Positions 1 through 19,863 of a DNA stretch of 43,071 nucleotides are shown here, in pieces. Location: positions 1 to 43,071 of IMG/VR virus record IMGVR_UViG_3300045454_000140; one strand, 5' to 3'. Source of the stretch: a virus. Below the pieces are notes generated by a model. The model did no database searches, was not told the origin of the DNA, and was given only the letters and a program-made list of their open reading frames with translations. A program made the translations under genes and the position numbers. Position 1 is the stretch's first letter. Every line of letters begins with the position of its first letter.

Positions 1-1356
1 TCATGCCACGGCCTCCAAGCATTGATCAGTCACCTTGGGCTGTAGTTCAAGGACGACTCGCTCAATCCCGTTCGGATGCAATCGTACCTCCAGGTCGTTC
101 GGCGAAACGATCACCTTCTCAACCAGGAGTTTCACGATCCGCGACTGCTCTGCCGGGAAAAGCTGATCCCATATGGCGTCAAGTCTCGTCATGGCCACCG
201 TAACCTTGGCTTCATCCAACGTCGGATCGAGCTCGATGGCGCGCGGCAACATCTCACCAAGGAGATTCGGTGATCGGAGAACCAGCCGCAATTGGTCGAG
301 CACAGCCGACTCTAGCTCTGCTGCAGGTAGGCGAGGTAGTCCTGATGCCCCGGCGTGCTCCTTGGCATCACGTTGCGGTAGGTAATACCTGTAACGGCGG
401 CCGTTTTTCTTCGTCGTGTGCCAAGGCGACAAGGCTCTCCCGTCATTGCCGTAGACGATTCCCTTCAGCAGATAGGGAACCTTGGCCCGTGTGGCATTTC
501 CTCGAACCCGCCCATTACTGGAGAGGATGGTCTGCGCGCTCTCCCAGATATCGCGATCAATCAACGCGGGATGCTCGGCTTGGTACCACTGTTCCTTGTG
601 GCGCAACTCACCGAGATAGGTCCGATTGTTGAGGACTTTGTAGATCAGCCCCTTATCGATCGGCTTGCCTTCGCGGATCTTGCCGTCCTGTGTCACCCAC
701 GACTTCGATGTTGCGCCGTCGAGCTTCAGTTCCCGGACCAGCATCGTGGCGGATCCCAGTTCAACAAAGCGCCGGAAGATATGTCGGATCAGTTTGGCTT
801 CCTGCTCGTTCGCCACCAAGCGCCTGTTAGCGACGTCGTAGCCAAGCGGTGGAACACCTCCCATCCACATGCCCTTGCGCTTGCTCGCGGCGATCTTGTC
901 GCGGATGCGTTCGCCGGTGACCTCGCGTTCAAACTGTGCGAAGGACAGCAGGATGTTCAACATCAGCCGGCCCATCGACGTAGTGGTGTTGAACTGCTGG
1001 GTGACCGAAACGAAGGACACACCGTAGCGTTCGAACACCTCGACCATCTTGGAGAAGTCAGCAAGACTACGTGTTAGACGGTCGATTTTGTAGATTACGA
1101 CCACATCGATCTTGCCGGCTTCGATGTCTGCCATCAAGCGTCGCAGCGCTGGGCGCTCCATGTTGCCACCGGAGAAGGCCGGGTCGTCGTAGTCATCTGC
1201 AACCGGAATCCAACCTTCGGCACGCTGGCTGGCGATGTAGGCATGGCCAGCATCACGCTGCGCATCGATAGAGTTGTATTCCTGGTCGAGTCCCTCATCC
1301 GTGGACTTGCGGGTGTAGACCGCGCATCGCATCCGCCGCTTCAGCACCTCACTCAT
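1..1356 (-). CDS. Large serine recombinase (phage integrase/resolvase family)
   Basis: Site-specific recombinase of about 451 aa, probably the integrase/excision enzyme of this element. The N-terminal resolvase domain carries YTRKSTDEG with the likely nucleophile Ser18, then DRLTR and the FAQFERE helix. A 'recombinase' DNA-binding domain follows (about residues 160-280) and then a long C-terminal region. The usual zinc-ribbon cysteines are absent: the corresponding segment reads SPWHTTKKNGRRYRYY. I chose the ATG at 1356 because it has a GGAGG SD and overlaps the upstream stop (ATGA); a further-upstream in-frame start would overlap the neighbour needlessly. It is co-transcribed with the DUF2924 gene. 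The stop codon is the first three bases of the window. Confidence 0.93.
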   Translation of the reverse strand: MSEVLKRRMRCAVYTRKSTDEGLDQEYNSIDAQRDAGHAYIASQRAEGWIPVADDYDDPAFSGGNMERPALRRLMADIEAGKIDVVVIYKIDRLTRSLADFSKMVEVFERYGVSFVSVTQQFNTTTSMGRLMLNILLSFAQFEREVTGERIRDKIAASKRKGMWMGGVPPLGYDVANRRLVANEQEAKLIRHIFRRFVELGSATMLVRELKLDGATSKSWVTQDGKIREGKPIDKGLIYKVLNNRTYLGELRHKEQWYQAEHPALIDRDIWESAQTILSSNGRVRGNATRAKVPYLLKGIVYGNDGRALSPWHTTKKNGRRYRYYLPQRDAKEHAGASGLPRLPAAELESAVLDQLRLVLRSPNLLGEMLPRAIELDPTLDEAKVTVAMTRLDAIWDQLFPAEQSRIVKLLVEKVIVSPNDLEVRLHPNGIERVVLELQPKVTDQCLEAVA

Positions 1357-1850
1357 CACTTGCCTCCATTCTTGGCCGAGGTCTTCGGTGTTGCCGGCGC
1401 TTTGAGTCCGAAAAACAGTGGTCCAGACCATCGGGTTCCGGTGATCTCTCGGGCAATCATCGACAGGCTCGGGTACATCCGGCCTTCGTAGTCATATTGA
1501 CCGTCTGCTGTGGCGGTCACTCGGTACTCGATCCCTTGATAGTCACGGGTCAAGACTGTTCCGGCCATCGGGCGGTAGTCGCGATCACGTTTTTTGACCT
1601 TGCCGGTCTCGACGATGGCTTCGATACGGCGCTTGTTGCGGTCAAGCATGCTGGCCCCAACCATGCGGAATTCCATTTCTTGGAGCTTGTAGGCGATACG
1701 ACGCTCAAGAAACTGTCGGTTGTGAGTCGGGTTTCCGCTGCCGAAGAGTCTGAGCCAGAGTGACTTGATCTCTGCCATGGGCAGTTCAGGCAATCCAGCG
1801 ATCTGCGCCGCCACGGTTTCTGAGGTGGTAAAGGTGTGGCACGTGTTCAT
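1356..1850 (-). CDS. DUF2924 family protein
   Basis: 164-aa protein with the features of DUF2924: N-terminal AEIKSLWLRLFG helix, RRIAYKLQE, and a C-terminal LTRDYQGIEYRVTATADGQYDYEGRMYPSLSMIAREITG segment that looks like a small DNA-binding or DNA-recognition fold (RAMA/SAWADEE-like in appearance, my inference). DUF2924 genes commonly lie directly upstream of serine recombinase genes in mobile elements, as here (ATGA overlap). It may assist the recombinase, but no function is established. Its start overlaps the stop of the upstream small gene by 4 nt. Confidence 0.8.
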   Translation of the reverse strand: MNTCHTFTTSETVAAQIAGLPELPMAEIKSLWLRLFGSGNPTHNRQFLERRIAYKLQEMEFRMVGASMLDRNKRRIEAIVETGKVKKRDRDYRPMAGTVLTRDYQGIEYRVTATADGQYDYEGRMYPSLSMIAREITGTRWSGPLFFGLKAPATPKTSAKNGGK

Positions 1851-15237: not shown

Positions 15238-15260
15238 ACCCGCCCCTGTGGCGGGTTTTT
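15238..15260 (+). terminator. Intrinsic terminator just before the first methyltransferase
   Basis: ACCCGCC, 5-nt loop, GGCGGGT, then a run of T. It ends 8 nt before the ATG of the methyltransferase, so it may act as an attenuator as well as ending upstream transcription. Confidence 0.75.
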
Positions 15261-15268
15261 GCATTCCA

Positions 15269-16678
15269 ATGACCGAACAACTGCGCGTCGAGTATCGCAA
15301 GATCGAGACGCTGATCCCTTTCGCCCGCAATCCGCGCACGCATTCCGATGCGCAGATTGCCAAGCTGGCCTCCAGCATCGTCGAGTTTGGCTGGACACAG
15401 CCCATTCTCGTCGACGGCGCCAACGGCATTATTGCCGGCCATGGCCGGCTGGCGGCGGCGCGCAAGCTGGATCTGCTGGAAGTGCCAGTGATTGAACTCG
15501 GCCACCTCTCGTCAGCACAGAAACGGGCCTACGTGATCGCCGACAACCGTCTGGCACTCGATGCCGGATGGGACGAGGAACTGCTCTCGCTGGAATTGGC
15601 TGAGTTGTCCGAGTCCGGTTACGACCTGACCATGACCGGCTTCTCCAACGAGGAGATTGAGGAACTACTGGTCGGTGCCGAGCAGGCATTACAGAACGAG
15701 TCCTCGCCCGACACCGAAGAGGATGCCGCCGACGATGTACCGGAGGCGCCATCGAACCCGGTATCGCGTCCAGGCGATGTCTGGCAGATCGGCGCGCATC
15801 GCGTCATCTGTGGCGATGCCACCGATCCGGTCGTGGTCCGAACCCTGATGGCTGGCGAGCAAGCCGCTCTGTGCTTCACCTCGCCGCCCTACGGCAACCA
15901 GCGGGACTATACGAACACCATCATTGATTGGGATGCCCTGATGCGGGGTGTCTTCGCCAACCTGCCGATGGCCGCGAACGGCCAGGTGCTGGTCAATCTC
16001 GGATTGATTCACCGCGAGCAGGAAGTCATCCCCTACTGGGACGGCTGGCTCGACTGGATGCGTACTCAGGGTTGGCGGCGCTTCGCCTGGTATGTCTGGG
16101 ACCAGGGGCCGGGATTGCCCGGCGACTGGAATGGCCGGCTAGCCCCTTCGTTCGAATTCGTCTTTCACTTCAACAGGAAGGACTCCGAAGCGCGCCGCCC
16201 GAACAAGTTCGTGCCCTGCATCTATGCCGGGCGTGACACCCATCTGCGTGGCGACGGCACCAGCGCCGGTGGCATGCGCAATAAGGATGGCAGCAAGACC
16301 GCCTGGAACCATGTCGGCCAGGTCACGCAGGAGACCAAGATTCCGGATTCCGTCATCCGCATCATGCGGCACAAGGGCAAGATCGGTCAGGACATCGACC
16401 ACCCGGCCGTGTTCCCGGTGGCGCTGCCCCAGTTCGTTCTGGAGTCCTACACAGATGCCGGCGAAATCGTCTTTGAACCGTTCTGCGGTTCGGGCACGAC
16501 CTTGCTGGCCGCCGAGCGCACCGGCAGAAAGGTACGCGCCACCGAGATCGCGCCGGAGTATGTGGACGTCACCGTGAAGCGCTTCCAGCAAAACTTTCCC
16601 GAGGTGCCGGTCACGCTGGCAGCAACGGGTCAGACCTTCGATGCCGTGGCCCGTGAGCGTCTGGGAGGTGCGGCATGA
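15269..16678 (+). CDS. ParB-domain/DNA methyltransferase fusion (TSPPY type)
   Basis: 469-aa fusion. Residues ~5-115 are a ParB/Srx-like N-terminal domain (KIETLIPFARNPRTHS..., GIIAGHGRLAAARKL, VIADNRLALDAGW). The methyltransferase part has motif IV TSPPY at 204-208 before the SAM-binding motif FEPFCGSGTT at 402-411, the beta-class order. TSPPY is common in N4-cytosine enzymes, though N6-adenine activity cannot be excluded. I start at the ATG at 15269 because the ParB domain begins there. No SD is visible and a terminator lies just upstream, so expression may be unusual. It probably modifies phage DNA against host restriction. Confidence 0.87.
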   Translation: MTEQLRVEYRKIETLIPFARNPRTHSDAQIAKLASSIVEFGWTQPILVDGANGIIAGHGRLAAARKLDLLEVPVIELGHLSSAQKRAYVIADNRLALDAGWDEELLSLELAELSESGYDLTMTGFSNEEIEELLVGAEQALQNESSPDTEEDAADDVPEAPSNPVSRPGDVWQIGAHRVICGDATDPVVVRTLMAGEQAALCFTSPPYGNQRDYTNTIIDWDALMRGVFANLPMAANGQVLVNLGLIHREQEVIPYWDGWLDWMRTQGWRRFAWYVWDQGPGLPGDWNGRLAPSFEFVFHFNRKDSEARRPNKFVPCIYAGRDTHLRGDGTSAGGMRNKDGSKTAWNHVGQVTQETKIPDSVIRIMRHKGKIGQDIDHPAVFPVALPQFVLESYTDAGEIVFEPFCGSGTTLLAAERTGRKVRATEIAPEYVDVTVKRFQQNFPEVPVTLAATGQTFDAVARERLGGAA

Positions 16679-17931
16679 CCATCTCCTGGCTTGCCGACAA
16701 GATCGAGCAATGGCCCACGGCCAAGCTGGTGCCGTATGCCCGCAACTCGCGCACCCACTCGGATGCTCAGGTCGCCCAGATCGCGGCGTCGATCGCCGAG
16801 TTCGGTTTCACTAATCCGATCCTGGCCGGAAGTGATGGCGTCATCGTCGCGGGCCACGGTCGTCTGGCGGCTGCTCAGAAGCTCGGCCTGGCCATGGTAC
16901 CGATCGTGGTGCTCGACCATCTGACGCCGACCCAGCGCCGAGCCCTGGTGATTGCGGACAACCGCATCGCCGAGAACGCCGGATGGGATGAGGCGATGTT
17001 GCAGGTGGAACTGGCCGCGCTGCAGGACGATCAATTCGACCTGGCCCTGACCGGGTTCGACGCCGACGCCCTGGCCGATCTACTGGCGGGTGAGGAAAGC
17101 ACTACCGAAGGCGACACCGACGAGGATGTGGTTCCGGACGGGTCCGGCACCGTCGTATCCCGGGCGGGCGACGTCTGGATCTGTGGTGAGCACCGGGTGA
17201 TCTGTGGTGATGCGACCGATGCCGATGCCTACGCGACGGTGCTCGGTGAAGAGATCGCCGACATGGTTTTCACGGATCCGCCGTACAACGTTAACTACGC
17301 CAACTCGGCCAAGGACAAAATGCGCGGCAAGGATCGCGCGATCCTCAACGACAACCTCGGCGACGGGTTCTACGATTTCCTGCTGGCGGCACTGACTCCC
17401 ACCGTGGCGCATTGCCAGGGTGGCATCTACGTGGCCATGTCTTCGAGCGAACTTGACCGCTTGCAGGCAGCGTTCCGTGCGGCCGGCGGCCACTGGTCTA
17501 CCTTTGTCATCTGGGCCAAGAACACCTTTACGCTGGGCCGCGCCGACTACCAGCGCCAGTACGAGCCAATTCTCTACGGCTGGCCCGAGGGTGCTGACCG
17601 CCACTGGTGCGGGGACCGCGACCAGGGAGACGTCTGGCAGATCAAGAAGCCGCAGAAGAACGATCTGCATCCGACCATGAAGCCGGTGGAACTGGTGGAA
17701 CGGGCCATTCGCAATTCGAGTCGCCCGGGCGATGTGGTGTTGGATCCCTTCGGTGGGTCGGGCACCACGATGATCGCGGCGCATAAGTCGGGCCGCCGTG
17801 CGCGGCTGATCGAACTGGATCCGAAGTACGTCGATGTGATTGTGCGCCGCTGGCAGGAGTTTTCTGGTGATAGTGCAATACGGCAATCAGACGGGATCGC
17901 CTTTGATGCTGAATTGACAGAGCAGAATTGA
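16675..17931 (+). CDS. ParB-domain/DNA methyltransferase fusion (DPPY type)
   Basis: 418-aa paralogue-like second fusion, coupled to the first by ATGA overlap. The ParB-like domain (residues ~10-120) is visibly similar to that of its neighbour: NSRTHSDAQVAQIAASIAEFGFTNPIL, IVAGHGRLAAAQKLG, VIADNRIAENAGW. The catalytic motif is DPPYN at 201-205, typical of N6-adenine methyltransferases. The SAM motif is LDPFGGSGTT (356-365), followed by RRARLIELDPKYVDVIVRRW. No cognate endonuclease gene is nearby, so it looks like an orphan modification enzyme. Confidence 0.9.
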   Translation: MTISWLADKIEQWPTAKLVPYARNSRTHSDAQVAQIAASIAEFGFTNPILAGSDGVIVAGHGRLAAAQKLGLAMVPIVVLDHLTPTQRRALVIADNRIAENAGWDEAMLQVELAALQDDQFDLALTGFDADALADLLAGEESTTEGDTDEDVVPDGSGTVVSRAGDVWICGEHRVICGDATDADAYATVLGEEIADMVFTDPPYNVNYANSAKDKMRGKDRAILNDNLGDGFYDFLLAALTPTVAHCQGGIYVAMSSSELDRLQAAFRAAGGHWSTFVIWAKNTFTLGRADYQRQYEPILYGWPEGADRHWCGDRDQGDVWQIKKPQKNDLHPTMKPVELVERAIRNSSRPGDVVLDPFGGSGTTMIAAHKSGRRARLIELDPKYVDVIVRRWQEFSGDSAIRQSDGIAFDAELTEQN

Positions 17932-17934
17932 CGA

Positions 17935-17965
17935 CGGGGACCGAAGTCCCCGCCGGCTTTTCTTT
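17935..17965 (+). terminator. Terminator between methyltransferases and tmRNA
   Basis: CGGGGAC, CGAA loop, GTCCCCG, then CCGGCTTTTCTTT on the plus strand. It ends the methyltransferase operon. The same stem lies just past the 3' end of the convergent tmRNA gene and may serve it too, though its minus-strand U tract is poor. Confidence 0.75.
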
Positions 17966-17969
17966 GGTA

Positions 17970-18245
17970 ACAAGGCTCAAGCAGCCTCGGCAAAGGCCTT
18001 AAGCGGCGATTGCGAAACGCTCATCGTTGGCGTTTAGAGATTTGCTTCATTAACGTCGATCGCCTGACGAGTTGCCTGCTTTCCTTCACTCACCCCGTCG
18101 AAACCAGTGCACCCCCAACTAAGAACACTACGATGTGATGCTTATGATGCTCTTAGGTGGAGGTGGCGGGAATCGAACCCGCGTCCGAAGCGCTTCCAGA
18201 TTGCCGGAATTACAACCATGCGTCGATTATGGGGGTAATGGCCCC
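17970..18245 (-). ncRNA. ssrA: Permuted (two-piece) tmRNA
   Basis: Transfer-messenger RNA, which rescues stalled ribosomes and tags the nascent peptide. On the minus strand the acceptor piece comes first: T stem GCGGG (18182-18178), loop TTCGATT, CCCGC (18170-18166), acceptor 3' strand CACCTCC (18165-18159), discriminator A (18158), then CC. The final A of CCA is not encoded. A 39-nt intervening segment (18155-18117) follows, then the coding piece starting GGGGGTG (18116-18110) and CTGGTTTCGACGGGG. GGGGGTG pairs with CACCTCC over 7 bp, including the G3-U70 wobble that alanyl-tRNA synthetase reads. The tag frame 18031-18002 encodes ANDERFAIAA with stop TAA at 18001-17999. GGAA and GCAAC of the coding piece can pair with TTCC and GTTGT of the acceptor piece (candidate P2). 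Outer boundaries are approximate. Permuted tmRNA genes are known in some betaproteobacteria, alphaproteobacteria and cyanobacteria. Confidence 0.9.
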
Positions 18246-18250
18246 GAATT

Positions 18251-18496
18251 TCAAGGAACGTGTTCACAACATACTGATCCAGTGTTCAATTTATCTAACG
18301 AGAACTCGGGATACAAATCGCCGCTGGTGATGTCCGCCACGTAGCCGACGTCGCTGAACTCACCGGGCTGGTCGGCGAGGATGACGCCGCCGACTGACTG
18401 GATTGCCACGCCGTACTTGCGGGAGAGTTTGGTAAGTTCGGCGATGAACTTGTCGTAATTGGCTTCGAGTTGCGGGGTGATGAGGACGGCTGCCAT
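18251..18496 (-). CDS. Small hypothetical protein next to tmRNA
   Basis: 81-aa protein, not recognised. The core is compact (LEANYDKFIAELTKLSRKYGVAIQSVGGVILADQ, then a YVADITSGDLYPEF tail). The last ~15 residues (SLDKLNTGSVCCEHVP) look like read-through into the leader of the tmRNA gene, whose acceptor piece starts within a few bases of its stop. A GGGG SD precedes the ATG. It follows the 125-aa gene by 12 nt, so the two form one unit under upstream element copy B. Confidence 0.62.
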   Translation of the reverse strand: MAAVLITPQLEANYDKFIAELTKLSRKYGVAIQSVGGVILADQPGEFSDVGYVADITSGDLYPEFSLDKLNTGSVCCEHVP

Positions 18497-19503: not shown

Positions 19504-19569
19504 GTTTTTTGATGAAGAATGAATTGGTGGCAGAATCCCCGCTTTCCAACCAAGGGGAGTAACCACCAC

Positions 19570-19863
19570 ATGAACAAATCGGAACTGATTGAAGCCCTGG
19601 CCACCAAGACCGACGTCTCCAAGGCCGCTGCAAGCAAGTCCGTCGACGCTCTGGTCGAGATCATCACCGCCGCTGTTGCCAAGGGCAACGACGTGGCCCT
19701 GATTGGTTTCGGCACCTTCAAGGCATCGAAGCGTGCTGCCCGTACCGGCAAGAACCCGAAGACCGGCGAAGCGCTCAAGATCGCGGCCACCACAGTTCCG
19801 ACGTTCAAGGCTGGCGCTGCCTTCAAGGCGGCTGTTGCCCCGAAGAAGAAAGCCAAGAAGTAA
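19570..19863 (+). CDS. HU/IHF-family DNA-binding protein
   Basis: 97-aa nucleoid-associated protein: MNKSELIEALATKTDVSKAAASKSVDALVEIITAA, then the signature IGFGTFKASKRAARTGKNPKTGEALKI, and a lysine-rich tail (APKKKAKK). It bends DNA as a dimer and could assist recombination, packaging or origin function. GGGAG precedes the ATG. It is the only plus-strand gene inside the minus-strand island and is followed by a terminator shared with the convergent DUF3489 gene. Confidence 0.93.
   Translation: MNKSELIEALATKTDVSKAAASKSVDALVEIITAAVAKGNDVALIGFGTFKASKRAARTGKNPKTGEALKIAATTVPTFKAGAAFKAAVAPKKKAKK

What the first reader, a model, noticed from the sequence alone, without database searches (positions are those of the whole stretch)
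17970..18245. Complete permuted (two-piece) tmRNA gene inside a phage genome
Seen: on the minus strand the T arm and acceptor 3' strand (CACCTCC) come first, then a 39-nt intervening segment, then the 5' end GGGGGTG, the GGTTTCGACGGGG signature and a tag frame ANDERFAIAA followed by TAA. GGGGGTG and CACCTCC pair over 7 bp with a G-U at position 3-70, the alanine identity element. Known: such circularly permuted ssrA genes exist in some betaproteobacteria and other lineages. Inference: the phage carries its own ribosome-rescue RNA, either captured from a host or kept to secure lytic translation. The tag ends AIAA where LAA is usual, which might alter proteolysis. It sits between methyltransferases and small accessory genes with phage genes on both sides, so it is not a chromosomal flank.
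Basis: partly seen in the sequence, partly recalled or inferred. Interest (0 to 1): 0.93.

Follow-up and report, generated by a model that had tools for sequence, protein, structure and literature searches.

The report
Host-derived ribosome-rescue RNA in a phage
A temperate bacterial virus carries a complete, host-derived copy of the two-piece RNA that frees stuck ribosomes, and at least two and probably three relatives carry copies at the same spot that match different bacteria, so these viruses seem to have picked up this gene again and again.

Summary
In detail: 17929-18267 (-) holds a complete circularly permuted betaproteobacterial ssrA gene (RF01850, 269 bits, full length) with tag ANDERFAIAA, a G3-U70 acceptor stem, its own TTGAAA-17-CATAAT promoter and a 3' hairpin. 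It lies inside a temperate tailed-phage genome. Closely related phages lack it cleanly: a pair 94-97% identical on both sides differs by one 366-bp ssrA cassette. Four phage contigs carry ssrA at this site, tail to tail with a methyltransferase gene. Their RNAs fall in different clades of chromosomal Rhodocyclaceae ssrA (W 100% over 255 nt, L015 98%, L099 96% to their nearest hosts; only 76-86% to each other). So host ssrA entered this site at least three times, or an old cassette was overwritten by host alleles. One host genome's only ssrA ends in the phage methyltransferase tail, which suggests phage-to-host traffic too. Permuted tmRNAs in phages are already published (phage Melnitz), so the gene is a new member of a known kind. 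The new parts are the 'moron' setting in temperate beta-phages and the repeated, host-matched acquisition. Function in infection is inferred, not shown.

The parts
17911..18301 (.). ssrA cassette: the whole stretch absent from close relatives
   Evidence: relatives align to W17858-17910 and resume at W18302-18318; sister pair L507/L349 differs by a 366-bp block at the same place
17929..18267 (-). permuted two-piece tmRNA gene (ssrA) with conserved promoter region
   Evidence: RF01850 269.2 bits full length; ARAGORN
18226..18254 (-). sigma-70-like promoter TTGAAA-17-CATAAT
   Evidence: 10 of 12 consensus matches; hexamers kept in phage and host copies
18156..18221 (-). piece A: T arm and acceptor 3' strand (CACCTCC, discriminator A, CC)
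   Evidence: 66/66 identical to MAG GS19
18117..18155 (-). intervening segment removed from the mature RNA
   Evidence: 39 nt; 38/39 as in host genome G018
17929..18116 (-). piece B: acceptor 5' strand GGGGGTG, GGTTTCGAC signature, tag frame, 3' domain
   Evidence: 188/188 identical to MAG GS19
17999..18031 (-). tag reading frame ANDERFAIAA and TAA stop
   Evidence: ARAGORN coding part 217-249
17932..17955 (-). 3' GC hairpin (CGGCGGGGAC-TTCG-GTCCCCGTCG) ending the gene
   Evidence: RF01850 consensus helix; compensated change versus G018
16675..17931 (+). ParB-like/N6-N4 DNA methyltransferase, convergent; its TGA stop lies in the end of the tmRNA gene
   Evidence: phrog_498, PF01555; C-terminal tails compared
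18251..18496 (-). small accessory ORF upstream; its last codons lie in the cassette
   Evidence: the ORF listing; no family match
1..1431 (-). large serine integrase of the phage
   Evidence: phrog_95, PF00239, PF07508
21994..23982 (+). terminase large subunit (start of the packaging/structural module)
   Evidence: phrog_15 E 5e-259

Best explanation
The cassette is a complete host ssrA transcription unit (promoter, permuted gene, terminal hairpin) sitting as an independent 'moron' between two convergent phage transcription units. Shown: it is an intact gene, it was taken from Rhodocyclaceae-type hosts, it is absent from close phage relatives, and phages of this group carry host-matched copies at this same site. 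Inferred: the transcript is cut by host tRNA-processing enzymes into the two-piece tmRNA, charged with alanine by host AlaRS through G3-U70, bound by host SmpB, and used for ordinary trans-translation with a host-type tag. It would then add tmRNA capacity (gene dosage in the lysogen and, more so, after phage DNA replication) when infection makes many broken or non-stop mRNAs. Repeated acquisition of host-matched alleles suggests a benefit rather than an accident.
For: Full-length RF01850 match and tag. Promoter kept. Empty sites in close relatives and in about 20 Rhodocyclaceae prophages. Same site in phage contigs L015 and L099, and in L140. The mature parts of the window RNA are identical to the single ssrA of MAG GS19 (255/255) while sequence 60 nt up- and downstream is only 54-69% alike (random 48%); L015 98% to G379, L099 96% to G211. 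Tree: three phage RNAs in three host clades, starred branches force three changes. Methyltransferase tree: the four carriers are scattered, minimum four changes. Phage versus nearest host: no RNA pair broken, some changes compensated. The spacer and flanks vary while the mature RNA does not, as expected if the RNA is under constraint.
Against: No expression, processing or function data. Carriage is rare: 4 among about 120 distinct relatives. Identity with the host could reflect recent capture, with no time yet for decay, rather than selection in the phage. The phage has no recognised SmpB in the region examined, so it depends on the host's. L140 is cut inside the tmRNA at its contig end and L015's contig begins about 180 bp upstream of it.
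Confidence: 0.72

Rival explanations
1. One ancestral insertion, later overwritten: ssrA entered this site once, spread between phages by recombination in the flanking genes, and its sequence was repeatedly converted by homologous recombination with the ssrA of whichever host the phage lived in. (This rival concerns the history of the cassette and is compatible with the function proposed above.)
For: All carriers have a similar short methyltransferase tail whose TGA stop lies in the tmRNA end (..AELTEQN*..DVLVAQN*..EMSVGNN*..ADSQET*), and tails FSGx are shared by window, L140 and L015. Host genome G175 has a single ssrA followed by the same kind of phage tail, evidence that phage and chromosomal ssrA exchange.
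Against: Carriers are scattered among empties, so many clean losses or many transfers are needed; the empty-site relatives show no ssrA remnant.
Confidence: 0.4
2. Passenger: the gene was caught by chance near an integration or recombination event and has no effect on the phage.
For: Rare in the group; some relatives with the same type of integrase sit directly downstream of the host's one-piece ssrA (G097, G172, G178, G406), so ssrA is physically within reach of aberrant events.
Against: Intact promoter, RNA and hairpin in window, L015 and L099; at least three host lineages represented at one site; no broken pairs. In the sampled hosts with permuted ssrA the prophages are not next to ssrA.
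Confidence: 0.25
3. Assembly chimera or host flank: the contig joins phage DNA to a host ssrA.
For: Contigs L140 and L015 end in or near the tmRNA, as happens when a second near-identical copy is in the sample.
Against: The window and L099 contigs have phage genes on both sides; a chimera needs shared sequence on both sides, and the flanks are phage-specific and collinear with tmRNA-less relatives.
Confidence: 0.03
4. Decoy: the phage RNA competes with or inhibits host trans-translation, as the tag-less tRNA-like RNA of mycobacteriophage DS6A does when expressed in E. coli.
For: A phage tmRNA-like inhibitor is known (PMC11915505, PMC4131195).
Against: Here the tag frame, both pieces and all consensus helices are present and the mature RNA equals a host's; DS6A has little more than the tRNA-like domain.
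Confidence: 0.05

Closest known systems
Two-piece (permuted) tmRNA of phage Melnitz and other marine/aquatic phages (PMC9004378)
   Same: Complete permuted ssrA inside a phage genome; proposed acquisition from bacteria; authors count 53 unique two-piece tmRNAs in phage genomes, 50 from marine or aquatic samples.
   Different: Melnitz is a marine myophage without integrase whose ssrA is alphaproteobacterial-like and associated with a glutamine riboswitch; here a temperate phage with a serine integrase, a betaproteobacterial-type gene equal to a Rhodocyclaceae chromosomal ssrA, a sigma-70 promoter, and clean empty sites in relatives.
Chromosomal permuted ssrA of Rhodocyclaceae (RF01850; MAG GS19, genome G018)
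   Same: Mature RNA identical (GS19) or 97-98% (G018), same tag, same promoter hexamers, spacer 38/39 in G018.
   Different: Located in a phage genome; flanks unrelated.
ssrA of mycobacteriophages (Bxz1, Wildcat and others) and Stenotrophomonas phages
   Same: Phage-borne tmRNA.
   Different: The mycobacteriophage genes are not reported there as permuted; no presence/absence at one site was examined for them here.
Prophages and islands that integrate at ssrA (e.g. CP4-57, Dehalococcoides islands; PMC10107115, PMC3146451)
   Same: Phage-ssrA association.
   Different: Those use ssrA as attachment site and restore or alter its 3' end; here the whole gene is in mid-genome, about 16.5 kb from the integrase.

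Membership tests
permuted betaproteobacterial tmRNA (RF01850) | covariance-model match over the full length | tested here: met
   269.2 bits, 1-331/331
permuted betaproteobacterial tmRNA (RF01850) | T arm/acceptor-3' piece before acceptor-5' piece with short spacer | tested here: met
   18221-18156, 39-nt spacer, 18116-17929
permuted betaproteobacterial tmRNA (RF01850) | G3-U70 alanine identity pair and 7-bp acceptor stem | tested here: met
   GGGGGTG/CACCTCC read from sequence
permuted betaproteobacterial tmRNA (RF01850) | in-frame tag ending in a hydrophobic -AA degron and a stop | tested here: met
   ANDERFAIAA TAA
permuted betaproteobacterial tmRNA (RF01850) | processed to a two-piece RNA and active in trans-translation | not testable with these tools
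   needs RNA and tagging assays
phage moron | extra gene between phage genes, absent from close relatives | tested here: met
phage moron | own promoter | tested here: met
   TTGAAA-17-CATAAT, conserved in host copies; activity not tested
phage moron | own terminator | tested here: inconclusive
   conserved GC hairpin at the 3' end but no U-run terminator found by the scan
attachment-site remnant of ssrA | partial ssrA next to the integrase | tested here: not met
   complete gene at 18 kb; integrase at 1-1431

The most novel reading that the evidence does not exclude
A group of temperate beta-phages is under recurrent selection to carry an ssrA that matches its current host, renewing it by exchange with the chromosome, and in turn donates ssrA alleles to hosts (G175), so that a core ribosome-rescue gene is trafficked by phages.
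Probability: 0.35. Interest if true: 0.75.

Novelty: new member of a known kind. Interest (0 to 1): 0.52.

Why it matters
tmRNA is a near-universal core gene, and why some phages carry it is an open question. Here there are near-isogenic phage pairs with and without the cassette, a defined insertion site, and several host-matched alleles. That makes the question testable: delete or swap the cassette and measure burst size, lysogen fitness and host range in laboratory strains. The phage tail next to a host's only ssrA also suggests that core rescue genes can be replaced through phages.

Tried and rejected
(1) 'AIAA is a phage-specific tag change': rejected. (2) 'All related phages carry it': rejected; of 80 terminase relatives only L099's contig has it, and of 80 methyltransferase relatives only L301 (the L140 contig), as a partial gene at the contig end. 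(3) 'Carriers are one clade': rejected on the methyltransferase tree. (4) The doubled hits in G400 as host plus prophage copies: identical including flanks, i.e. assembly redundancy. (5) The L526-L528 hits as further phage-borne permuted tmRNAs: they are one-piece host-type ssrA genes at contig starts. (6) attR of prophages next to ssrA: no usable repeat found; serine integrases leave too short a core. (8) The host of the window phage could not be named: the record is 43 kb only and looks trimmed at gene ends.

Full report
What is there. The minus strand of 17929-18267 matches the Rfam model of betaproteobacterial permuted tmRNA over its whole length (269.2 bits, cut-off 84), and ARAGORN reads the tag ANDERFAIAA. 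The order is: promoter TTGAAA-17-CATAAT (18254-18226), piece A with T arm and acceptor 3' strand (18221-18156), a 39-nt spacer, and piece B with GGGGGTG, the GGTTTCGAC signature, the tag (18031-17999) and the 3' domain ending in a GC hairpin. 48 of 51 consensus pairs are standard.

Where it lies. The window is an IMG/VR virus record of 43,071 bases. Both ends coincide with stop codons of ORFs, which looks like a provirus trimmed at gene boundaries (inference). It has a large serine integrase, a repressor-like gene, replication genes, two tandem ParB-methyltransferase genes, terminase, portal, protease, capsid, tail genes and endolysin. The tmRNA is between the second methyltransferase (16675-17931, convergent) and a group of small minus-strand genes, about 3.2 kb before the terminase small subunit.

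It is an extra cassette. Relatives with 92-96% methyltransferase identity align to the window up to 17858-17910 and again from 18302-18318, with only 16 to about 90 bases instead of the gene. The clearest pair is the L099 phage (L507) and L349: 97.4% identical over 2.8 kb on one side, 94.2% over 3.1 kb on the other, with 366 bases containing ssrA against 16 bases. About 20 prophages in Rhodocyclaceae genomes also have no tmRNA there. Of the 20 host genomes examined, 10 have a one-piece tmRNA; most of the others have a permuted one.

Same site, different alleles. Four phage contigs carry ssrA at this site: the window, L140 (cut in the gene at its contig end), L015 and L099. In all four the methyltransferase ends in a short tail whose TGA lies in the end of the tmRNA gene, whereas in relatives without tmRNA the reading frame takes other ends, often running on into the antisense of the next gene. 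On a tree of 124 methyltransferase genes the carriers are scattered, minimum four changes. The mature RNAs are each nearest to a different chromosomal ssrA: window 255/255 identical to MAG Rhodocyclaceae GS19, L015 98.0% to G379, L099 96.1% to G211, while the phages are 85.5% (window-L015), 76.5% (window-L099) and 85.5% (L015-L099) alike. On a tree of 129 RNAs the three full-length phage genes fall in three host clades, and well-supported branches force three changes. GS19 (G005), G018, G306, G379 and G211 each have one permuted tmRNA; those of GS19, G018 and G041 share chromosomal neighbours. The window's spacer is 38/39 identical to G018's, and L015's is 25/25 identical to G306's, while 60-base flanks outside the gene are about 50-69% alike against 48% for random sequence aligned the same way. 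So host ssrA has entered this site at least three times, as new insertions or as replacement of an older copy. The data do not decide between these two; the similar tails argue for replacement, the scattered distribution for repeated gain or spread between phages.

Traffic the other way. Genome G175 has one permuted ssrA. Directly after it, overlapping its end, are about 38 codons of this phage methyltransferase's C-terminus..ELDPKYVDVIVRRWQDFSGGRATRQSDEVACDDVLVEHN*, most like L140's ..FSGGSATRQSDKAAFNDVLVAQN*. Beyond that the contig continues with chromosomal-type genes, and no other window protein matched the 19 kb examined. A simple assembly chimera would not explain the second junction. 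The simplest reading is that a carrier phage's ssrA end replaced or became the host's.

Function. Phage copies show no broken base pairs relative to their nearest hosts and some compensated changes. The tag is host-type: ANDERFAIAA, ANDEQFAIAA, ANDERFAVAA and ANDERFALAA are ordinary chromosomal tags in this family. The most likely function is ordinary trans-translation with host SmpB, AlaRS and proteases, raising tmRNA supply during infection or lysogeny. That is inference; no expression or activity data exist here. A decoy role such as that of the DS6A fragment is unlikely because the gene is complete.

Known and new. Two-piece tmRNAs in phages are published: Melnitz, with 53 unique permuted tmRNAs in phage genomes, 50 of them from marine or aquatic samples (PMC9004378), and 79 unique bacteriophage tmRNAs in the 2025 tmRNA database (PMC11915505). 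The open-access searches found no report of a permuted tmRNA as a moron in temperate beta-phages, of clean empty sites, or of repeated host-matched acquisition; subscription papers were not searchable. I therefore file the gene as a new member of a known kind, with an unusual and testable evolutionary pattern.

Noticed in passing
L212 3726-4471 (Dechloromonas agitata is5); G010:C1:1035746-1036471: Two permuted ssrA copies head to head about 20 bp apart; the second has the tag ANDEQFAIAA but a degraded T-arm piece, so it looks like a decaying duplicate.
   Followed up: partly
G097:C77:60849-63757, G172:C71:49144-52060, G178:C44:13581-16091, G406:C1:883-3780: Relatives of this phage with a related serine integrase sit about 0.8-1.3 kb downstream of the host's one-piece ssrA, suggesting that the ssrA 3' region is an integration site for part of the family.
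   Followed up: partly
L520 9540-10160 (genome G175): The genome's only permuted ssrA is followed by a 38-codon remnant of the phage methyltransferase, overlapping the tmRNA end.
   Followed up: partly
L125, L129, L133, L154 (viral contigs): Permuted tmRNAs with an unusually long predicted tag, AKANTFEYFQVPVTLATANDAEFAIAA; possibly ARAGORN starting the frame too early.
   Followed up: no
plasmid NZ_CP017753.1 240696-241006 (Cupriavidus sp. USMAHM13): A permuted-tmRNA-like stretch, 76% identical over 79% of the query, on a 278-kb plasmid, annotated as a hypothetical protein.
   Followed up: no
window 15248-17931: Two adjacent ParB-like/N6-N4 methyltransferase genes that are homologous to each other (tandem paralogues).
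   Followed up: no
window 19519-19863: Phage-encoded HU/IHF-like DNA-binding protein (PF00216) on the plus strand within the minus-strand accessory gene group.
   Followed up: no
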